22,953 bases of DNA. Source: a virus. Below, piece after piece: positions 12,390 to 22,552 of the stretch. Under the pieces are notes generated by a model. It had not been told where the DNA came from. It ran no database searches and saw only the letters and a list, made by a program, of their open reading frames with translations. The position numbers and the translations under genes are program-made. The stretch spans positions 1 through 22,953 of the IMG/VR virus record IMGVR_UViG_3300025425_001250, one strand, 5' to 3'. Positions within the stretch are counted from its first letter, which is position 1. Each line of letters begins with the position of its first letter.

Positions 12390-13073
12390 ATGACATTAAT
12401 TAAACCCAAGTATACATACGAGAAATTAAAACGAGTTGAAGTTGACGGCAAAAGAAGATACGCTGCACCTGGTGGAGCGCCCGTAGCCAGTGTTACTACT
12501 ATTCTCAGTGCTACCAAAGATCAAACACATTTGATACAGTGGCGCAACAGAGTAGGCCATGCCAAAGCACAAGAGATTACCATTGAAGCTGCTGGTGTTG
12601 GCACTAGAATGCACAAGTATCTTGAAGATTATGTAGACAATGGTGTGTGGACAGAATCAGCAGGCAGCAATCCCTATGCACAGCAGGCATACAAAATGGC
12701 CTGCGTGGTACGTGATGAGGCTATGGTTCATGTTGATGAGATATGGGGATCAGAAGTTCCGCTGTATGTTCCAGGCATTTACGCTGGTACCACTGACCTA
12801 GTTGGACAGTACAAAGGTAATCCTGCAATTATGGATTTTAAGCAGTCCAACAAACCCAAGAAGCCTGAGTGGGTAGAAGACTATCGATTACAAATTGTTC
12901 TTTATGGTATTGCACATAATGAAGTCCATGGTACCGATATTCGTGAAGGCCATATCTTTATGTGCTCGCGTGCTCTCGAATATCAACAGTTTGATGTATG
13001 GCCGGATGAATGGGAATACTGGTCAAAAAAAGCATGGGACAGAGTATACGATTATTATAAGAATTGTGCATAA
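12390..13073 (+). CDS. PD-(D/E)XK exonuclease, Cas4/RecB-type
   Basis: 227 residues. The core has the order typical of RecB/Cas4-like nucleases: GTRMH (H75), D136 in GTTDLVG, D149-F-K151 in AIMDFKQSNK, and the Q-x-x-x-Y motif in YRLQIVLYG (Q168, Y172). No Fe-S cysteine set is present, so it is not a classical Cas4. Such phage nucleases process DNA ends in recombination and host DNA breakdown, acting with single-strand binding and recombinase proteins. The early-type promoter directly in front fits an early replication/recombination role. Its 3' end is duplicated in tandem downstream (13074-13268), with an 82-base identical block. Confidence 0.85.
   Translation: MTLIKPKYTYEKLKRVEVDGKRRYAAPGGAPVASVTTILSATKDQTHLIQWRNRVGHAKAQEITIEAAGVGTRMHKYLEDYVDNGVWTESAGSNPYAQQAYKMACVVRDEAMVHVDEIWGSEVPLYVPGIYAGTTDLVGQYKGNPAIMDFKQSNKPKKPEWVEDYRLQIVLYGIAHNEVHGTDIREGHIFMCSRALEYQQFDVWPDEWEYWSKKAWDRVYDYYKNCA
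12883..12964 (+). repeat. 82-bp perfect direct repeat, copy 1 (inside nuclease gene)
   Basis: Bases 12883-12964 and 13078-13159 are identical over 82 positions with an offset of 195 (65 codons, in frame). Beyond the block the two copies stay similar in protein but differ in many bases. Confidence 0.92.
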
Positions 13074-13268
13074 TTGAATCGATTACAAATTGTTCTTTAT
13101 GGTATTGCACATAATGAAGTCCATGGTACCGATATTCGTGAAGGCCATATCTTTATGTGTAGTCGTGATCTAACCTATCAACAGTTTGATGTATGGCCAG
13201 ACGAGTTTGACGACTGGGCTCGGGAATGGTGGAAGCGTTGTGAGCAATACTATTCCGAAAACGGCTAA
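13074..13268 (+). pseudogene. Duplicated C-terminal end of the nuclease gene
   Basis: The frame directly continues that of the nuclease after its TAA: LNRLQIVLYGIAHNEVHGTD, then FMCSRDLTYQQFDVWPDEFDDW, and 20 more residues to a TAA at 13266-13268. It repeats residues from RLQIVLYG on, with an alternative tail (DDWAREWWKRCEQYYSENG in place of EYWSKKAWDRVYDYYKNCA). It lacks motifs GTTDL and DFK and any ribosome site; the only start would be TTG. It is either a dead fragment, a tail allele left by recombination between two phage strains, or an assembly bubble. Confidence 0.75.
13078..13159 (+). repeat. 82-bp perfect direct repeat, copy 2 (after nuclease gene)
   Basis: Second copy of the block at 12883-12964, located 5 bases after the nuclease stop codon. 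Confidence 0.92.
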
Positions 13269-15382: not shown

Positions 15383-16324
15383 ATGATTCAAGTTACCAAA
15401 CGCAACGGCACTCGAGAACCACTGGATATTGAAAAGTTACACAAAGTAGTTTTTTATGCGTGTGACGGCGTCAACGGAGTAAGCCCTAGCGAAGTAGAAA
15501 TCAAGAGTCAGATTCAATTTTACAATGGTATTACTACCAAAGAGATTCAAGAAACATTGATCAAAGCGGCCGCGGATCTAATCACAGAAGAAACCACTAA
15601 CTACCAGTATGTGGGCGGCAGGTTGATCAATTATGCACTGCGCAAAGAAGTATACGGACAGTTTGAACCTTGTGCTGTCAAAGACCTAGTCAAGCGCAAC
15701 ACTGATCTAGGATTTTATGATCCAGAATTGATCTCATACTATACGGACGAAGAGTGGGATCGCATCAACAGCTTTGTAAAACACGAGCGTGATGAAAGTT
15801 TAACCTATGTGGCCATGGAACAACTGCGCGGCAAGTATCTAGTACAGAACAGAGTCAGTGGTGAGATCTTTGAAACACCACAGATGTGTTATATCCTTAT
15901 CGCTGCCACACTGTTTCACAACTATCCTCAAGAGTCAAGACTAACCTGGGTCAAGGACTACTACGACGCAATCAGCCAACACGACATCAGCTTGCCTACA
16001 CCGGTTATGGCAGGAGTTCGTACACCACAGCGTCAGTTCTCAAGTTGTGTGTTGATTGAAACAGGTGACAGCTTAGACAGCATCAACGCCACAGCCAGCA
16101 GCATTGTCAAATATGTTAGTCAGAAAGCAGGCATTGGTATTGGCGGCGGAAGTATCCGTGCTATTGGTAGCCCAATCCGCAAGGGTGATGCGTATCACAC
16201 TGGTATTATTCCATTCTATAAGCACTTTCAATCAGCTGTTAAAAGCTGTTGTTTAGATCCCGATACATACGTTGAAGTTATTGATGAAGATAGCAAGGGG
16301 GAGTTAGAGGAAAAAGATAAATAA
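15383..16324 (+). CDS. nrdA: NrdA fragment 1 (extein 1-289) fused to split-intein N-part (IntN1)
   Basis: Class Ia ribonucleotide reductase large subunit, first of four pieces. Residues 1-90 are the ATP-cone (VTKRNGTREPLDIEKLH, then YQYVGGRLINYALR). The catalytic barrel starts after that and includes the redox cysteine C222 (RQFSSCVLIETGDS; C225 in E. coli). The extein ends at AVKSC, inside the invariant motif KSC-SQGGVRGGA. Then a second Cys begins IntN1: CLDPDTYVEVIDED, 24 residues ending KDK-stop. The N-part carries only intein block A. Trans-splicing with the IntC at 17179 is needed to restore NrdA. The last codons GAT AAA TAA double as the late promoter of the following endonuclease. Confidence 0.92.
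   Translation: MIQVTKRNGTREPLDIEKLHKVVFYACDGVNGVSPSEVEIKSQIQFYNGITTKEIQETLIKAAADLITEETTNYQYVGGRLINYALRKEVYGQFEPCAVKDLVKRNTDLGFYDPELISYYTDEEWDRINSFVKHERDESLTYVAMEQLRGKYLVQNRVSGEIFETPQMCYILIAATLFHNYPQESRLTWVKDYYDAISQHDISLPTPVMAGVRTPQRQFSSCVLIETGDSLDSINATASSIVKYVSQKAGIGIGGGSIRAIGSPIRKGDAYHTGIIPFYKHFQSAVKSCCLDPDTYVEVIDEDSKGELEEKDK
16250..16321 (+). other. Split intein 1, N-terminal part (24 residues)
   Basis: It starts with Cys1 (16250-16252) directly after AVKSC. Only block A (CLDPDTYVEV) is present. The break between blocks A and B is the atypical split position known for a few phage inteins such as AceL-TerL. Confidence 0.85.
16316..16323 (+). promoter_or_regulatory. Late promoter box GATAAATA of endonuclease 1
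   Basis: The box lies in the last codons of IntN1. The predicted start is about 16329, followed by AGGAG (16331-16335) and the ATG at 16344. No inverted repeat was found around it. Confidence 0.55.
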
Positions 16325-16343
16325 GCATACAGGAGATATTATT

Positions 16344-17189
16344 ATGGCATATACTTATTTAATCGGCTGGTCTAAATTAGAAAAGTATTATTATGGAGTT
16401 AGGTATTCTAAATTTGCTCGGCCCGAAGAACTCTGGGTAACGTACAAAACTTCGTCGAAGTATGTTAAAGAAATAGCGGATGAATTTGGTCCGCCAGATT
16501 TAATACAAATTCGAAAAATATTTAATAATAAAGTAGATGCAATTAATTGGGAAAGTAAAGTATTGCGTCGAATGAGGGTAATAGAGAATTCTAAATTTAT
16601 TAATAGGTGGGATAACAGTATGGTCCCAATTAACATCAATGGGCACTACCCGTTTGAGGACAGTGTGATACAAGCAAAGGTAGAAAGAACATTTAAAGAG
16701 AAATATGGAGGGAAAGGTAGTGGGTCTGACATTATTAAGAAAAAAGTTTTTGATACTAACGTGCAGCGATATGGCACATATCATACCCTTCATCTAGATA
16801 ACGTAAAAGATGCAAGGATTCAAGGAAACTTACAAAAATTTGGAACTGACAATGCATTTAAGAACAAAGAACAATTAGCAAAGATTATGCTCGAGCGTCA
16901 CGGGGTTACTAATATGATGTTGGATCCGGCAACTAAATTGAAACACGCTAACGTAATGAAAGAAAAAGATTGGACTGATAGAAATATTAAAGTTAAGGAA
17001 ACAAATTTACAAAAATACGGAACAGCATGTGCAATGAATCGATCCGAAATTCGCATGAAACACACCCGTGTGTGCCCATTCTTATGCCGTGACAGCCACA
17101 AATATGATGCAGGAAATTTTACAAACCATATGAAGAAAAAACATAATTGGACTACCGAACAAATACAGGATTTTAAAAATGAAAACTAA
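16344..17189 (+). CDS. GIY-YIG homing endonuclease between the halves of intein 1
   Basis: 281 residues. The N-terminal GIY-YIG nuclease is YTYLIG at 3-8 and KYYYGVRYSK at 14-23, with the catalytic Glu in INWESKVLRR (E70). The central part has repeats of the type LQKFGTDNAFKN and LQKYGTACAMNRSE, DNA-binding repeats common in phage endonucleases. The C-terminal end has CPFLC...H...H, a probable zinc finger (about 245-268). The enzyme would cut intein-less nrdA alleles and spread the locus. It has its own late promoter and ribosome site. Its last 11 bases overlap the start of IntC1-NrdA. It is freestanding, not fused to the intein. Confidence 0.85.
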   Translation: MAYTYLIGWSKLEKYYYGVRYSKFARPEELWVTYKTSSKYVKEIADEFGPPDLIQIRKIFNNKVDAINWESKVLRRMRVIENSKFINRWDNSMVPININGHYPFEDSVIQAKVERTFKEKYGGKGSGSDIIKKKVFDTNVQRYGTYHTLHLDNVKDARIQGNLQKFGTDNAFKNKEQLAKIMLERHGVTNMMLDPATKLKHANVMKEKDWTDRNIKVKETNLQKYGTACAMNRSEIRMKHTRVCPFLCRDSHKYDAGNFTNHMKKKHNWTTEQIQDFKNEN

Positions 17190-17577
17190 GCTAATAAAGA
17201 TTAAAGACTTAAAGCCCGGCATGAAAATTAAGTCATACGATGAAGTTGCACACGAAGTAGTGTATAAAGAAGTTACTGATGTTTGGGAAACAGAAGTAAA
17301 AATAGAGGATCAGAGGCACATATTTTTCTCTAATGGTACAGAACTAAAATGTTCGAGTAATCACCCAATTATGGTTCTCAATAAAGGCACGATGCAACAA
17401 ATATTACCCGACGATCTGCAACCCGAACATCATATTATTAGCGAATACAGGATAACCACTATTGATAAGATCACATATAGTAACCGGCCACCGGCACATA
17501 TAGATATTACGGTAGAAGATGGCCATGTATTTTTTGCATCCGATAGACTAGATGACGAACAAATTTTAACTCATAAT
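17179..17577 (+). other. Split intein 1, C-terminal part (133 residues)
   Basis: It contains blocks B, F and G. It ends with His-Asn (THN), and the first extein residue is Ser (17578-17580). Together with IntN1 it gives a 157-residue mini-intein. Confidence 0.88.
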
Positions 17578-18333
17578 TCCCAAGGCGGAGTAAGAGGCGG
17601 TGCAGCCACTATCTACTACCCTATATGGCACTATGAGATAGAAGATATGTTGGTGCTGAAGAACAACAAAGGCACAGAAGAAAATCGTGTGCGTCATATG
17701 GATTATGGCGTACAGTTTAACAAACTGTTTTATGAAAGACTGATACAGGGCGCTGACATTACACTGTTTTCTCCAGCTGATGTTCCTGGGCTGTATGATG
17801 CATTTTTTGCTGACCAGGATCTATTTCGTAAACTGTATGAAACTGCTGAACGCAACACCAAACTGCGTAAAAAGACAGTAAAAGCAATTGATTTATTCAG
17901 TGCGTTTATGGAAGAGCGTAAAAACACAGGCCGTATCTATCTACAGAATGTAGACAACGCAAACGACCACGGTAGCTTTATTCCGTCAATTGCTCCTATC
18001 CGCCAGAGTAACTTATGTCTAACAGGCGACACTAAGATTGAAGTAATATTCAATAATGAAAAATTAATTATTAATCTCGACGAAATCGGAACGTTAATGG
18101 TTCAGGACGAAGATCTGTTAGTTAAATCTTACAATATACTTGATAATAAAACAGAGTATAAAAAGGTTGAAGCATTTGCAAAGACCAACCCAGATGCAGA
18201 AGTTATTAGTATCTTTGACGAAGATTCCGGAAAGACTATAGAATGCACACCTGAGCATAAAATTTATACATTGAACCGAGGGTATGTAGAAGCGCAAGAA
18301 TTAACGGAAACTGACAGACTTTTAATATCGTAA
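17179..18333 (+). CDS. nrdA: IntC1 - NrdA fragment 2 (146 residues) - IntN2
   Basis: 384 residues in three parts. Residues 1-133 are the C-part of intein 1, with block B as KCSSNHPIMV (H62) and the end DEQILTHN. Residues 134-279 are NrdA sequence: SQGGVRGGAATIYYPIWHYE, VDNANDHGSF and finally IAPIRQSNL. Residues 280-384 are IntN2: CLTGDTKIEVIF, block B as IECTPEHKIY, ending RLLIS-stop. The start codon overlaps endonuclease 1, and a CAGGA site precedes it. The extein piece alone lacks the ATP-cone and the radical-site Cys, so it must be spliced on both sides. The presence of both an IntC and an IntN means it must take part in two separate trans-splicing events. Confidence 0.92.
   Translation: MKTKLIKIKDLKPGMKIKSYDEVAHEVVYKEVTDVWETEVKIEDQRHIFFSNGTELKCSSNHPIMVLNKGTMQQILPDDLQPEHHIISEYRITTIDKITYSNRPPAHIDITVEDGHVFFASDRLDDEQILTHNSQGGVRGGAATIYYPIWHYEIEDMLVLKNNKGTEENRVRHMDYGVQFNKLFYERLIQGADITLFSPADVPGLYDAFFADQDLFRKLYETAERNTKLRKKTVKAIDLFSAFMEERKNTGRIYLQNVDNANDHGSFIPSIAPIRQSNLCLTGDTKIEVIFNNEKLIINLDEIGTLMVQDEDLLVKSYNILDNKTEYKKVEAFAKTNPDAEVISIFDEDSGKTIECTPEHKIYTLNRGYVEAQELTETDRLLIS
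18016..18330 (+). other. Split intein 2, N-terminal part (105 residues)
   Basis: It starts with Cys1 (18016-18018) after QSNL. It has block A (CLTGDTKIEV) and block B (CTPEH). The split is at the classical position. Confidence 0.88.
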
Positions 18334-18339
18334 CTAAAT

Positions 18340-18380
18340 TAATCTCCGTACATAGAGGTAAATACTATGTACGGAGATTA
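18340..18380 (+). promoter_or_regulatory. Perfect hairpin with the late promoter in its loop and the ribosome site in its arm
   Basis: 18340-18355 pairs with 18365-18380 over 16 bp without mismatch. The 9-base loop is AGGTAAATA, so the late box GGTAAATA (18357-18364) lies in it. The ribosome site CGGAG (18372-18376) is in the 3' arm. A transcript starting at about 18370 would lack the 5' arm and free the site. Confidence 0.85.
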
Positions 18381-18382
18381 TT

Positions 18383-19297
18383 ATGAACTATGATACATTA
18401 TATAAAAATTTTATAAACTACTGCAAAACTACATCTCCTCGATGTAGATTACAATTAAGGAATGACACAGACATGAGACTGCTCAGTGAACACATATATG
18501 TTGAAAATCATCATATTATTCCAGTTTCGGTGGGCGGCGATAATTGTGTTGACAACTTAGTTTTATTGTTACCAGAAGAGCATTTAATGGCTCACAAGAT
18601 AAGATACAAAGCATACAGTTTAAGGCAAGATATGTTAGCAGTTCGTTTTATTCTTAATGGACTAATGAGCAAGGGACATATCAACAAGGTTACTAGAATG
18701 CAAATAACAAAATACATCAAGCAACAATATGCATGGATCCGTAGCTCATCGGCAGAATTTAGATTGCAGCATGGCTGGCAGACAAAATCAGGAATTGAAA
18801 GAATATCAGCCGCTAGGAAAGGAACTATGCCAGTTAAGGATGCAATAACTGGAAAAATGATAGGCTCTGTTAGCACAACACACCCTAGCGTGTTATCAGG
18901 ACAGTGGGTTCATCATTCGAGTGGTAGACAACTAAGCAACACGCATAAATCAAAACTAAAGTCACAGATCGGCACTAAAAATAATAATTACAAGACATTT
19001 GCAACTCGTGAGTTTTTATTAGATTTTTTAAACAATAATCAAGCCGCAGCAATGAGTGACTTGGTGTATTTTTCCAACAAACATTTCAATGCGCTACTTA
19101 AAGAACATGTTCAAAAAACATATAACTCAAAAATAAATGCTAATACCATATTAACAAACCGATTTCTATCTGTCGAAAATTTTATAAAAACATATAATCA
19201 AATGTATAGTGAAAATATAATTTATAATCCGTACTATCGCAGTATCGAATATAAACAAAAAATCTCTAATACACTCAAGGAAAAAAATAAATGCTAA
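18383..19297 (+). CDS. HNH homing endonuclease between the halves of intein 2
   Basis: 304 residues. The HNH core is at 40-72: YVENHHIIPVSVGGDN, then DNLVLLLPEEHLMAHK (H43/H44, N58, H67, H71). The later part is Lys/Arg-rich with motifs such as GMPVKDAITGKMIGS and NTHKSKLKS, probable DNA-binding modules. It belongs to the same type as the endonuclease at 21914. The start is 2 bases after a perfect hairpin that hides its ribosome site, so it should be made only from its own late promoter. The stop overlaps the IntC2 start by 7 bases (ATGCTAA). AT content is higher than in the NrdA exteins, consistent with a foreign element. Confidence 0.85.
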   Translation: MNYDTLYKNFINYCKTTSPRCRLQLRNDTDMRLLSEHIYVENHHIIPVSVGGDNCVDNLVLLLPEEHLMAHKIRYKAYSLRQDMLAVRFILNGLMSKGHINKVTRMQITKYIKQQYAWIRSSSAEFRLQHGWQTKSGIERISAARKGTMPVKDAITGKMIGSVSTTHPSVLSGQWVHHSSGRQLSNTHKSKLKSQIGTKNNNYKTFATREFLLDFLNNNQAAAMSDLVYFSNKHFNALLKEHVQKTYNSKINANTILTNRFLSVENFIKTYNQMYSENIIYNPYYRSIEYKQKISNTLKEKNKC

Positions 19298-19389
19298 AAA
19301 TTACAAGACAAAATAAAAGAGAAGCAGTGTATGATATCACGGTATCAGACAACGAAAATTTCTTTGCAAACGGAATACTAGTACACAAT
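19291..19389 (+). other. Split intein 2, C-terminal part (33 residues)
   Basis: Blocks F (YDITVSDNENFFANG) and G (ILVHN) are present. The +1 residue is Cys (19390-19392), the radical cysteine of NrdA. Confidence 0.9.
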
Positions 19390-20295
19390 TGCGCAGAAAT
19401 TGACCTGCCTACCAAGCCGTTGAACGATCTCAATGACCCAGACGGCGAAATCTCGCTTTGTACCTTGTCAGCAATAAATTGGGGCAACATTCGCACACTA
19501 ACAGACTTTGAGCGTGTATGTCGTTTAGCAGTTCGTGGACTAGATGCACTGTTGAGCTATCAAAACTATCCTATCCTAGCTGCCCAACTTAGCACAGAAA
19601 AGCGTAGGCCTTTGGGTGTTGGCATTATCAATTTTGCCTACTGGATGGCCAAGAACGGACTCAGCTATCAAAACATTGACGCACAAGGGCTAGCACTGAT
19701 TGACGAATGGGCAGAAGCTTGGAGTTACTATTTGATCAAAGCCAGTGCTGATCTTGCTGTTGAGTTTGGTGCTTGCCCTGGAACACCCGAAACCAAGTAC
19801 GGCTTGGGCATCACACCTAATCAAACCTATGCATCAGCACTGGACGAACTAGTACCACATCAAGAACGCATGGACTGGCAAGGTCTGCGTGAACAGCTTA
19901 AGACAACTGGCATCCGCAACTCAACACTGATGGCACTGATGCCTAGTGAATGTCAAAGCTTGGCAAATGAAATGAGGCTAAAAGATGGAACAGTTGTAAC
20001 GCTCGCCGAAGTTATTCAAGATTACGGAAAAATTGATATTAACACTGTTCACGAAAAATTCATGATAGGTCAGAGATTTCCATTCCTTAAACCAGTTGAA
20101 TTGTCAGATAGTATAGCATATGAATGTTATTATAATGGCCCTCAATCTGTTACAGAAATTGAATTAGAAGACGGATCGGTATATAAATTTACTAATAATC
20201 ACAAACTTCTTGTATTACGAAATAACATAAAAGAATGGATCGAAGTTAAAGATTTATTAGAAGATGACGATATTGTTAGCGTTAATGATAAATAA
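19291..20295 (+). CDS. nrdA: IntC2 - NrdA fragment 3 (187 residues) - IntN3
   Basis: 334 residues. Residues 1-33 are IntC2 (MLKITRQNKREAVYDITVSD to ILVHN). Residues 34-220 are NrdA: CAEIDLPTKPL, in which the first Cys corresponds to the thiyl-radical Cys439 of E. coli; ISLCTLSAINWG (redox partner Cys462); RRPLGVGIINFAYW; ending STLMALMPSE. Residues 221-334 are IntN3, ending VSVNDK-stop. IntC2 has its own ribosome site (AAGGA). The stop region (GAT AAA TAA) is also the late promoter of endonuclease 3. This fragment holds most of the catalytic core and cannot act before two splicing reactions. Confidence 0.92.
   Translation: MLKITRQNKREAVYDITVSDNENFFANGILVHNCAEIDLPTKPLNDLNDPDGEISLCTLSAINWGNIRTLTDFERVCRLAVRGLDALLSYQNYPILAAQLSTEKRRPLGVGIINFAYWMAKNGLSYQNIDAQGLALIDEWAEAWSYYLIKASADLAVEFGACPGTPETKYGLGITPNQTYASALDELVPHQERMDWQGLREQLKTTGIRNSTLMALMPSECQSLANEMRLKDGTVVTLAEVIQDYGKIDINTVHEKFMIGQRFPFLKPVELSDSIAYECYYNGPQSVTEIELEDGSVYKFTNNHKLLVLRNNIKEWIEVKDLLEDDDIVSVNDK
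19951..20292 (+). other. Split intein 3, N-terminal part (114 residues)
   Basis: It starts with Cys (19951-19953) directly after MPSE. Block B is FTNNHKLLVL. Block A is unusual: CQSLANEMRLKDGTVVTLAE lacks the usual G-D-T after the Cys. Confidence 0.82.
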
Positions 20296-20316
20296 TTATA
20301 AGCATTAACGCTAACA
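20274..20316 (+). promoter_or_regulatory. Perfect hairpin enclosing the late promoter of endonuclease 3
   Basis: GTTAGCGTTAATG (20275-20287) pairs with CATTAACGCTAAC (20303-20315), 13 bp without mismatch, plus T20274-A20316. The 15-base loop holds most of GATAAATA (20287-20294) and the IntN3 stop codon. The ribosome site AGGAG (20316-20320) starts at the foot of the 3' arm. Confidence 0.85.
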
Positions 20317-20325
20317 GGAGATAAT

Positions 20326-21309
20326 ATGAAAGCAAACCCGTATGACTGGGAATATGTAATGAAGAGAGATGCTTGTTCTAAGGAACAAGCACTCGACACC
20401 ATTTCAAAACTAAAAGAAAAATCTGCATGGAACCGAGGAAAAAAGATTAAAAAGTCTAACCCATATGATCCGGAATATGTAATGAAAAGAGATGCTTGTT
20501 CCCAGGAACAAGCACTTGCTACTATTTCAAAGTTTAAAGCAGACAAAGCAACGTCACAGGCAAACTTTATTAAAAAATATGGAAACGAAGAAGGCACCCG
20601 GCGGTATAACAATTGGAAGAGTAAGTCCTTACAAAAAGGTTGGGATACTGTTAAGAAGAATGGAAGATCACAGTCACCTCGTTGTAAAGAATACTATATA
20701 AGGAAGGGACATACTCCCGAAGATGCTGTAACATGCGCAATAGAGTTCCAACATAAAAATAGTCCGATGCATATTCAGTATTATCTGGATAGGGGAAAGT
20801 CTTTTGATTATGCAAAAAGAAAAATTAGAGAAATACACGATCAAAAAATAGGTATTGATTCTTACAGACAATATTTAGAAAAGACAACGTTATTAAATGA
20901 AAACGAGATTAATCATAAGATAAAGGAAAATAGAGGTCACAACACAATTAATAACCTAGGAGAAAACGTTTTTAAAGAACGGCAATCAAAGATCAGAAAA
21001 ACATTAGAAGAAAATGGCATTTGGGTTCCATATTGTGACTTATCCAATTATAAAAAGTATCACAAAGAAGTATGGAAATATACTAATCAACATGACCTAA
21101 ATTTATTAGTGAATTATGAAAAAAGAGGCCGAGCAGGTATCAACAACGCCTATCATCTAGATCATAAATTCTCAATATCTCGAGGATTTATTGAAGGAAT
21201 TGATCCTGCGCTATTAGGAAGCTTGCAAAATTTAGAATTTATTCCCTGGGAAGATAACGTGTCAAAACAAGGAAAATGTTCAATTACAAAAGAGGAATTA
21301 TTAAAATGA
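20326..21309 (+). CDS. HNH-type homing endonuclease with N-terminal repeats, between the halves of intein 3
   Basis: 327 residues. The N-terminal half has four related helical repeats: NPYDWEYVMKRDACSKEQAL, NPYDPEYVMKRDACSQEQAL, SPRCKEYYIRKGHTPEDAV and SPMHIQYYLDRGKSFDYAK. They are probably DNA-reading modules. The C-terminal nuclease part is NAYHLDHKFSISRGF, IDPALLGSLQNLEFIPW and EDNVSKQGKCSI, an HNH/His-Me-finger form with H-x-D-H. This differs from the HNH type of endonucleases 2 and 4. The stop overlaps the IntC3 start (ATGA). It would cut intein-less nrdA near the PSE-TS codons and favour spread. Confidence 0.8.
   Translation: MKANPYDWEYVMKRDACSKEQALDTISKLKEKSAWNRGKKIKKSNPYDPEYVMKRDACSQEQALATISKFKADKATSQANFIKKYGNEEGTRRYNNWKSKSLQKGWDTVKKNGRSQSPRCKEYYIRKGHTPEDAVTCAIEFQHKNSPMHIQYYLDRGKSFDYAKRKIREIHDQKIGIDSYRQYLEKTTLLNENEINHKIKENRGHNTINNLGENVFKERQSKIRKTLEENGIWVPYCDLSNYKKYHKEVWKYTNQHDLNLLVNYEKRGRAGINNAYHLDHKFSISRGFIEGIDPALLGSLQNLEFIPWEDNVSKQGKCSITKEELLK
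20335..20415 (+). repeat. DNA-level repeat unit 1 in endonuclease 3
   Basis: 27 codons (NPYDWEYVMKRDACSKEQAL and seven more) match the unit at 20458-20538 in most bases, with identical runs such as GAATATGTAATGAA and AGAGATGCTTGTTC. This indicates a recent internal duplication. Confidence 0.8.
20458..20538 (+). repeat. DNA-level repeat unit 2 in endonuclease 3
   Basis: Second copy of the unit at 20335-20415. Two more distant copies are visible only at protein level. Confidence 0.8.
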
Positions 21310-21410
21310 AAATTAAACGTATTACAAGAGACGCAGGAACAGAACACACTTGGGATGTTTCAACTGACAACGAAACTTATACCTTGTCAAATGGATGCAT
21401 TAGTCATAAC
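21306..21410 (+). other. Split intein 3, C-terminal part (35 residues)
   Basis: Block F is TWDVSTDNETYTLSNG and block G is CISHN. The +1 residue is Thr (21411-21413), within the NrdA motif MPSE-TSAQ. Confidence 0.9.
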
Positions 21411-21851
21411 ACTAGTGCGCAAATTGCAAATGCTACCAACGGTATTGAACCACCGCGCAGTCTAATCTCAATCAAGCAGAGCAAGCATGGCGTACTCAAG
21501 CAGGTAGTGCCAGAGTTTAAAAAGCTCAAGAACAAATATGATCTACTGTGGGATCAGCGTAGCCCAGAAGGCTATTTAAAGATCATGGCAGTGTTGCAGA
21601 AATATATTGATCAAGGCATCAGTGTAAACACCAGCTACAATCCACAGTACTACGAAGACGAGAAGATTCCACTTAGTACAATGTTGCAGCATCTGTTGAT
21701 GTTCTACAAGCTAGGCGGAAAACAGCTTTATTATTTCCAAACAAACGATGGCCAAGGAGAGTTGGACACAGACAAAATGATATCTGATAACAGCGTACAG
21801 GAATTGCCCGCCGTCGAAGATGATCAAGATTGTGAATCTTGTCATATCTGA
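21306..21851 (+). CDS. nrdA: IntC3 - NrdA fragment 4 (C-terminal 146 residues)
   Basis: 181 residues from the ATG at 21306. This start makes an ATGA overlap with endonuclease 3 and has an AGAGGA site in front; an ATG at 21276 is less likely. Residues 1-35 are IntC3 (MKIKRITRDAGTEHTWDVST to CISHN). The extein begins TSAQIANATNGIEPPR, the phosphate-binding segment after PSE. It continues to KQLYYFQTND (the Tyr pair of the radical path) and ends DDQDCESCHI, the mobile CxxC redox tail. With the other fragments it completes a 768-residue NrdA (T4 and E. coli enzymes: about 750-760). Confidence 0.92.
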   Translation: MKIKRITRDAGTEHTWDVSTDNETYTLSNGCISHNTSAQIANATNGIEPPRSLISIKQSKHGVLKQVVPEFKKLKNKYDLLWDQRSPEGYLKIMAVLQKYIDQGISVNTSYNPQYYEDEKIPLSTMLQHLLMFYKLGGKQLYYFQTNDGQGELDTDKMISDNSVQELPAVEDDQDCESCHI

Positions 21852-21884: not shown

Positions 21885-21915
21885 GATAAATAATAGCAAG
21901 GAGACTTGCTATTAT
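21885..21915 (+). promoter_or_regulatory. Late promoter and hairpin with the ribosome site in its loop
   Basis: GATAAATA (21885-21892) is followed by TAATAGCAAG (21891-21900), a GAGA loop, and CTTGCTATTA (21905-21914). The site AGGAG (21899-21903) spans the loop and the ATG is in the 3' arm. A start at about 21898 would remove most of the 5' arm. Confidence 0.75.
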
Positions 21916-22552
21916 GAATTACCAAAGAATATACGATGCATTATGCAAACGAGGAAGAGAACGAGTGTTAAAGGAGTATACTGAAAAACATCATATTCTT
22001 CCTCGTTGTTTAGGAGGAAGTGATAGTAACGACAATCTTACTAAGTTAACAGCTAGAGAACATTATCTAGCACACTACTTATTAACTAAGATGTGTCCGA
22101 GAGATTATAAACTGTTACACGCATTTGCTAGTATGTCTAGAGTTAGTCCGAACCATCAAAGAACACATATGTCTAGACATTATGAAAAGATGACAGCGGC
22201 TAGGTCGTTAGCAATGAAGATAAACAACCCTGCCAACGGCGTCGCATGGAATAGCGGAACTGCTGGACAAGGACACAAAAGTCTGCGTAAGACAGATATC
22301 ACAGACTGGGAGAAAAAAGCTGCATCTGAAAGAATGAAAAAGAACAATCCAAACGCATCCGGTGATCAAAATAAGAAGACAACATATGTATATAGTGTTG
22401 ACGGCACAGAAAGTTTTGAATTTAATAGCCTTACAGAAGCAGAGAAATTTATAAGTAATCACACTGGCAAATTAATAAATCATACCTCGGTATGGAACAA
22501 TATGAAAAAAAATAGATCGTATAAGGGATACATTTGGACATATACCATCTAA
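21914..22552 (+). CDS. Freestanding HNH homing endonuclease between nrdA and nrdB
   Basis: 212 residues. The HNH core is EKHHILPRCLGGSDSNDNLT and REHYLAH (H26/H27, N41, H50, H54), the same type as endonuclease 2 (both start MNY-x-x-x-Y). The C-terminal 55 residues (VYSVDGTESFEFNSLTEAEK, then a helix and YKGYIWTY) look like a NUMOD1-type DNA-binding module. It is not flanked by intein parts: nrdA ends 60 bases before it with a normal CxxC tail. It therefore sits in an intergenic spot, as do T4 Seg and Mob enzymes. The start lies in a hairpin with a late promoter overlapping the 5' arm. Confidence 0.85.
   Translation: MNYQRIYDALCKRGRERVLKEYTEKHHILPRCLGGSDSNDNLTKLTAREHYLAHYLLTKMCPRDYKLLHAFASMSRVSPNHQRTHMSRHYEKMTAARSLAMKINNPANGVAWNSGTAGQGHKSLRKTDITDWEKKAASERMKKNNPNASGDQNKKTTYVYSVDGTESFEFNSLTEAEKFISNHTGKLINHTSVWNNMKKNRSYKGYIWTYTI

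What the first reader, a model, noticed from the sequence alone, without database searches (positions are those of the whole stretch)
18340..18380. Perfect 16-bp hairpin puts the late promoter in its loop and hides the ribosome site of endonuclease 2
The stem is mismatch-free. GGTAAATA is in the loop, CGGAG in the 3' arm, and the ATG two bases beyond. Read-through RNA from nrdA would fold and block translation. RNA starting at the late promoter (about 18370) lacks the 5' arm and is free. The same logic is known for the T4 td-intron endonuclease I-TevI. Here it controls an endonuclease nested in a split-intein gene.
Basis: partly seen in the sequence, partly recalled or inferred. Interest (0 to 1): 0.85.

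Follow-up and report, generated by a model that had tools for sequence, protein, structure and literature searches.

The report
RNA lock delaying phage homing endonuclease
A perfect RNA hairpin with a phage late promoter in its loop probably keeps a selfish DNA-cutting enzyme, lodged between the halves of a split intein, silent until late infection; the trick is known from phage T4, and here it recurs across many split-intein endonucleases.

Summary
The hairpin is real: 16 of 16 pairs, 18340-18355 with 18365-18380, loop AGGTAAATA, GGAG in the 3' arm, ATG at 18383; 0 of 200 shuffles of the window reach 16 pairs. The T4-type reading (late promoter inside a hairpin that hides the ribosome site) is well supported in silico. 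Among 112 TAAATA-preceded genes in the window and four related phage records, endonuclease 2 has the largest predicted gap between read-through and late RNA (20 kcal/mol); endonuclease genes exceed other genes (p = 2e-4). Its relatives, nearly all in a split intein at the same ribonucleotide reductase site, mostly keep the layout with different arm sequences. Swapping arms between relatives abolishes pairing (14.7 vs 7.0 kcal/mol, p = 9e-5), with no such effect in other late genes. Two more endonucleases here and the one in the gp41-1 split intein carry similar hairpins. A close relative lost the gene by a deletion starting inside the hairpin. The device is known (I-TevI, I-TevII, Aeh1 mobE), so this is a new, very strong member of a known kind; its spread through split-intein endonucleases was not found in the papers searched. 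Transcript starts and late-only translation are untested.

The parts
18340..18355 (+). 5' arm of hairpin, contains anti-SD TCTCC; lies after the stop codon of the NrdA/intein-N ORF
18356..18364 (+). loop AGGTAAATA with T4-type late promoter element GGTAAATA (18357-18364)
   Evidence: motif class enriched upstream of genes; same GGTAAATA in the equivalent hairpin of L157
18370..18370 (+). predicted late transcription start (6 nt after last A of TAAATA); inferred from the T4 rule, not mapped
   Evidence: inference; used
18365..18380 (+). 3' arm of hairpin, holds Shine-Dalgarno GGAG (18373-18376)
18383..19297 (+). endonuclease 2 (HEG2), 304 aa, HNH homing endonuclease (phrog_655)
17179..18333 (+). 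IntC of intein 1 + middle NrdA extein + IntN of intein 2 (CLTGDT... to stop)
19291..20295 (+). IntC of intein 2 + NrdA extein + IntN of intein 3; own SD (AAGGA) inside the end of HEG2
20274..20316 (+). second hairpin of the same kind: 14/14 bp arms 20274-20287 / 20303-20316, TAAATA 20289-20294 in loop, before HEG3
20326..21309 (+). endonuclease 3 (HEG3), in split intein 3
21890..21915 (+). third hairpin: 11/11 bp arms 21890-21900 / 21905-21915, SD in loop, start codon in 3' arm; TAAATA 21887-21892 overlaps the 5' arm
21914..22552 (+). endonuclease 4 (HEG4), free-standing HNH gene after nrdA
16344..17189 (+). endonuclease 1 (HEG1) in split intein 1; GATAAATA at 16316-16323 upstream but no hairpin
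15383..16324 (+). NrdA N-terminal part + start of intein-1 N fragment
21276..21851 (+). IntC of intein 3 + C-terminal NrdA part

Best explanation
A timing lock for a homing endonuclease. Transcripts that read through nrdA early or mid infection carry both arms, fold the 16-bp hairpin and bury the GGAG ribosome site, so endonuclease 2 is not translated although nrdA parts, which have their own ribosome sites, are. When the phage late sigma factor becomes active, RNA polymerase starts inside the hairpin at about 18370, so the late RNA lacks the 5' arm and is translated. Shown by sequence and computation: hairpin, promoter element, ribosome site, split-intein context, differential accessibility, conservation of the layout with arm sequences that change together. 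Inferred: start site, early read-through, translational block, late expression.
For: Anatomy. ATAAATA enriched 16-31 nt before starts, 43 vs 5. Late sigma factor (phrog_12791, E 4e-76) next to a gp47-like gene in the 251-kb relative. HEG2 ranks 1 of 112 TAAATA-preceded genes in read-through minus late opening cost, 20.0 kcal/mol; 11 endonuclease genes vs 101 others p = 2e-4, and 7e-4 without HEG2. Positive controls I-TevI, I-TevII and Aeh1 mobE give 8.8, 12.3 and 7.7. HEG2 relatives: 15 distinct upstream regions with TAAATA 17-35 nt before the start, 12 with opening cost of at least 10 kcal/mol in read-through RNA. Arm swap: native 14.7 vs chimeric 7.0 kcal/mol, p = 9e-5; GIY-YIG family 8.9 vs 5.5, p = 1e-5; 33 non-endonuclease late genes 5.9 vs 5.3, p = 0.25. 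Same layout before HEG3 and HEG4 in this window and at the gp41-1 split intein. Each downstream NrdA part has its own SD-like sequence, so silencing HEG2 need not cut NrdA.
Against: No expression data. GGTAAATA departs from the usual ATAAATA (second base G: 6 forward vs 3 reverse). The window is a 22,953-base fragment and holds no late sigma gene itself. HEG1 has a promoter element but no hairpin. L084 and L092 keep the HEG3 hairpin but lack TAAATA in its loop, L084 with an intact HEG3. Relative L149 has no TAAATA. Some virion genes also score high, so the layout is not unique to endonucleases.
Confidence: 0.85

Rival explanations
1. Intrinsic transcription terminator or attenuator after the NrdA/intein-N gene.
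For: Long stable stem just after a stop codon.
Against: No U-run after the stem on either strand; the terminator scan does not list it. Downstream nrdA parts must be transcribed. In relatives the SD or start codon sits in the loop or 3' arm.
Confidence: 0.04
2. DNA palindrome bound by endonuclease 2 as an autorepressor operator resembling its homing site, as described for I-TevI, in addition to or instead of an RNA hairpin.
For: 3' arm TATGTACGGAGATT matches some intein-less nrdA junctions up to 12/14; the junction ranks near the top of 200 nrdA positions.
Against: Against each relative's own joined junction the similarity is at chance for 15 family members (combined p = 0.56; window itself 0.17). 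Arms differ in sequence between relatives although the protein is conserved.
Confidence: 0.08
3. Chance or relic: the hairpin is left over from insertion or deletion of the endonuclease and has no regulatory role.
For: Mobile elements leave repeats; L004/L005 carry half of the 5' arm as a relic.
Against: Beyond all shuffles; layout recurs with unrelated arm sequences in many relatives, and native arms pair far better than swapped ones. The relic arises by loss of the gene, and there the lock is gone too.
Confidence: 0.04
4. Hairpin only lowers translation at all times, with the promoter element a coincidence, as in HEG3 of L084 where TAAATA is missing.
For: L084 and L092 HEG3 hairpins without TAAATA; GGTAAATA is an uncommon variant.
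Against: TAAATA lies in or beside the hairpin of 15 HEG2-family upstreams at a consistent 17-35 nt from the start, and L157 has the same GGTAAATA in the loop of an unrelated-sequence hairpin.
Confidence: 0.1

Closest known systems
Aeromonas phage Aeh1 mobE (HNH gene inside nrdA)
   Same: HNH endonuclease between two parts of nrdA; hairpin with TAAATA inside and RBS in 3' arm (PMC2988022). Short HNH-region similarity to HEG2, 48% over 40 aa.
   Different: No split intein in Aeh1 according to PMC3653736 (parts function unspliced); hairpin sequence unrelated; shorter protein.
T4 I-TevI and I-TevII (intron endonucleases)
   Same: Late promoter inside or beside an RBS-sequestering hairpin; same prediction by the same metric (PMC2988022, PMC3014915).
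   Different: Lie in group I introns, GIY-YIG enzymes; early silence also protects RNA splicing there, which cannot apply to a split intein.
Fractured genes: split inteins with an endonuclease gene between the halves (Dassa et al. 2009, cited in PMC3653736 and PMC10448857)
   Same: Extein-IntN / endonuclease / IntC-extein arrangement, in nrdA and others.
   Different: The cited paper itself could not be read here; no mention of promoter or hairpin control was found in the papers searched.
T4 genes e and soc
   Same: Late gene with 5'-arm-dependent RBS hairpin on early read-through RNA (PMC3014915).
   Different: Phage structural or lysis genes, not mobile endonucleases.

Membership tests
Late-promoter / RBS-hairpin control of phage homing endonucleases (I-TevI, I-TevII, mobE type) | Hairpin pairs the RBS region in read-through RNA | tested here: met
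   opening cost 22.6 kcal/mol
Late-promoter / RBS-hairpin control of phage homing endonucleases (I-TevI, I-TevII, mobE type) | T4-type late promoter placed so that late RNA lacks the 5' arm | tested here: met
   sequence: TAAATA in loop; late opening cost 2.5 kcal/mol; the start itself is not mapped
Late-promoter / RBS-hairpin control of phage homing endonucleases (I-TevI, I-TevII, mobE type) | Phage has a T4-type late transcription sigma factor | tested here: inconclusive
   present in the 251-kb close relative; the window is a fragment without it
Late-promoter / RBS-hairpin control of phage homing endonucleases (I-TevI, I-TevII, mobE type) | Endonuclease translated only late | not testable with these tools
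   needs infection experiments
Late-promoter / RBS-hairpin control of phage homing endonucleases (I-TevI, I-TevII, mobE type) | Promoter region mimics homing site (autorepressor operator, I-TevI) | tested here: not met
   similarity to own junction at chance; not a defining feature of the hairpin device
Fractured gene: split intein plus nested endonuclease gene | Extein-IntN and IntC-extein as separate ORFs flanking an endonuclease gene | tested here: met
   same in relatives
Fractured gene: split intein plus nested endonuclease gene | Halves trans-splice into full NrdA | not testable with these tools
   motifs present (CLTGDT, VHNC), activity not tested
HNH homing endonuclease, phrog_655 | Profile match over full length | tested here: met
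   E 1.1e-20, residues 1-299
Intrinsic terminator | Stem followed by U-run | tested here: not met

The most novel reading that the evidence does not exclude
The late-promoter hairpin lock is a general, repeatedly re-evolved part of endonuclease genes nested in split inteins, across HNH and GIY-YIG families and across host genes (class I and other RNR, gp41), so late timing is selected for reasons other than protecting RNA splicing.
Probability: 0.6. Interest if true: 0.6.

Novelty: new member of a known kind. Interest (0 to 1): 0.5.

Why it matters
For I-TevI it was argued (PMC2988022, PMC3014915) that delayed translation matters because ribosomes would disrupt intron folding. In a split intein nothing is spliced at the RNA level, yet the same lock is present, often stronger, with different arms in different phages. 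That separates two explanations for late endonuclease expression (protecting splicing versus limiting or timing DNA cleavage) and offers many natural variants, including a natural deletion (L004/L005), for testing. It also adds a regulatory part to the split-intein modules from which the widely used gp41-1 intein comes.

Tried and rejected
DNA operator or homing-site mimicry: a suggestive match with some intein-less alleles did not hold against each relative's own junction. Intrinsic terminator: not met. Rfam: no family matched. TAAATA count over the window is not above chance, so the motif alone carries no weight. Search for HEG2 with one sequence found only an identical contig; the family appeared only with an alignment query. 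T4 gp55 gave a hit in only two of nine relatives; the others are fragments. PDB search of HEG2: no useful relative. Structure prediction was not run, as the protein fold does not bear on the hairpin. Not all HEGs fit: HEG1, L149, L195 and L207 lack a strong hairpin.

Full report
OBSERVATION. The hairpin is exactly as described: 16/16 pairs, 18340-18355 with 18365-18380, nine-base loop AGGTAAATA, GGAG in the 3' arm, ATG at 18383. Free energy -27.6 kcal/mol, z = -6.7. In 200 dinucleotide shuffles of the whole window the longest perfect inverted repeat never passed 14.

CONTEXT. The window is a complete 22,953-base IMG/VR virus record. nrdA is cut into four ORFs by three split inteins: 15383-16324, 17179-18333, 19291-20295 and 21276-21851, with endonuclease genes HEG1, HEG2 and HEG3 in the three gaps and a free-standing HNH gene HEG4 behind. 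Each NrdA part after a gap has its own SD-like sequence, so it need not depend on translation of the endonuclease. HEG2 is an HNH homing endonuclease of phrog_655.

NOT ALONE. The second and the seventh inverted repeats of the window have the same role. Before HEG3: 14/14 pairs with GATAAATA running into the loop, the SD just outside the stem. Before HEG4: 11/11 pairs, SD in the loop, start codon in the 3' arm, TAAATA overlapping the 5' arm. HEG1 has GATAAATA but no hairpin. The HEG2 hairpin lies wholly after the stop codon of the upstream ORF, whereas the 5' arm of the HEG3 hairpin is inside the upstream coding sequence and would be opened by translating ribosomes; the HEG2 lock is the better placed one.

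IS IT A LATE PROMOTER? TAAATA is not over-represented in the window as a whole. In 866 called ORFs of the window and four related records ATAAATA is concentrated 16-31 nt before start codons, 43 on the coding strand against 5 on the other. The closest large relative (251 kb, 92% identical over NrdA and intein-N) encodes a late sigma factor (phrog_12791, E 4e-76) beside a gp47-like gene. GGTAAATA is an uncommon variant, but L157 has the same octamer in the same place in a hairpin of unrelated sequence.

DOES THE LAYOUT PREDICT TIMING? The free energy needed to open -16..+3 was computed for read-through RNA and for RNA starting six bases after TAAATA. Of 112 genes preceded by TAAATA, HEG2 shows the largest difference (22.6 to 2.5), HEG4 ranks 3 and HEG3 10. 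Eleven endonuclease genes, labelled by profile or motif, exceed the 101 others, p = 2e-4, or 7e-4 with HEG2 left out. The same metric gives 8.8 for I-TevI, 12.3 for I-TevII and 7.7 for Aeh1 mobE, the cases described in PMC2988022 and PMC3014915. Some virion genes also score high, as T4 e and soc would lead one to expect.

COMPARATIVE TEST. An alignment query found 40 loci of the HEG2 family, 18 with distinct upstream regions. All but one of the loci examined lie in a split intein after the SNL|C site of a ribonucleotide reductase large subunit, in both NrdA-like and quite different RNRs. Fifteen have TAAATA 17-35 nt before the start and twelve of these need at least 10 kcal/mol to open in read-through RNA. 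Arm sequences differ (for example CCTCTTTGCAT/ATGCAAAGAGG in L143, TTCCTCTTCGT/ACGAAGAGGAA in L146, TTGGTTCCTTACTG/CAGTAAGGAACCAA in L157). When the part upstream of the predicted start of one relative is joined in silico to the downstream part of another, the occlusion is lost: native 14.7, chimeric 7.0, late-only 2.9 kcal/mol, p = 9e-5. A GIY-YIG family from a different insertion in nrdA gives 8.9, 5.5 and 3.2, p = 1e-5. A random set of 33 non-endonuclease late genes gives 5.9, 5.3 and 3.5, p = 0.25. Within the GIY-YIG family paired changes are plain: ATAATACTATAC/GTATAGTATTAT against ATAATATTATAC/GTATAATATTAT. A GIY-YIG gene at the HEG2 site in L009 and the GIY-YIG gene inside the gp41-1 split intein (GTAAGTTATAC...TATAAATA...GTATAACTTAC, L280) have it too.

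NATURAL DELETION. L004/L005 are identical to the window up to 18350 (AATTAATCTCCGTA) and then continue with the last codons of HEG2: the gene, late promoter and 3' arm are gone, half of the 5' arm remains, and the split intein is kept. The junction has a three-base overlap, GTA. L007 also has the split intein without the endonuclease, and L011 has a joined intein without one. Neither L004 nor L007 keeps the hairpin, so the lock goes with the endonuclease and not with the intein.

CONTRARY FACTS. L084 and L092 keep the HEG3 hairpin but without TAAATA; their loop GCTTATA is the reverse complement of TATAAGC in L091, as if inverted between the arms. L084 still has an intact HEG3. HEG1 has no hairpin. 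L149 lacks TAAATA.

REJECTED. The 3' arm looks somewhat like the intein-less nrdA junction of other phages, which would recall the I-TevI operator, but tested against each relative's own joined junction it is at chance. No terminator. No Rfam family.

STANDING. Function most likely: a lock that restricts HEG2 translation to late transcripts (0.85). The device is known from T4 and Aeh1; PMC2988022 lists I-TevI, II, III, segB and Aeh1 mobE. The fractured-gene arrangement is known too (Dassa et al. 2009, cited in PMC3653736; the paper is not held). The combination, and its recurrence through split-intein endonucleases, was not found in the papers searched, which is not proof of absence. It matters because in a split intein no RNA splicing needs protection, so late timing must serve something else, most simply limiting or timing DNA cleavage.

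Noticed in passing
L004:5973-6200, L049:5490-6488, L091:3088-4090: A further insertion in the nrdA part after intein 2 (about residue 48 of that ORF, ISLC): 226 nt without ORF in L004, with a GIY-YIG gene in L049/L091. Too short for an intein, presumably a group I intron, but no Rfam match at gathering score.
   Followed up: partly
L084:925-980, L091:4940-4990, L092:3530-3587: HEG3 hairpin loop occurs in opposite orientations (GCTTATA vs TATAAGC) in near-identical phages, and the 10-nt stretch with the late promoter element is missing; looks like inversion between hairpin arms.
   Followed up: partly
window 12890-13268: ORF 13074-13268 repeats the C-terminal about 60 residues of the exonuclease-like ORF 12390-13073 (phrog_298), a tandem partial duplication.
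   Followed up: no
L011:3754-5199: Same intein site occupied by a joined, endonuclease-free mini-intein, an alternative state to the split one.
   Followed up: partly
L006:3848-5735: Relic of HEG1 C-terminus (54% over 53 aa) and two stretches matching the NrdA2 ORF, suggesting a different stacking of inteins in nrdA.
   Followed up: no
L107:17613-18566: A tail-fibre-like gene has the second strongest late-promoter hairpin effect (17.6 kcal/mol), so the lock is also used for some virion genes in this phage group.
   Followed up: no
L273, L299 (gp41-1 loci): Some gp41-1 split inteins have only the IntC ORF or an unrelated ORF behind IntN, possible endonuclease-loss states.
   Followed up: no
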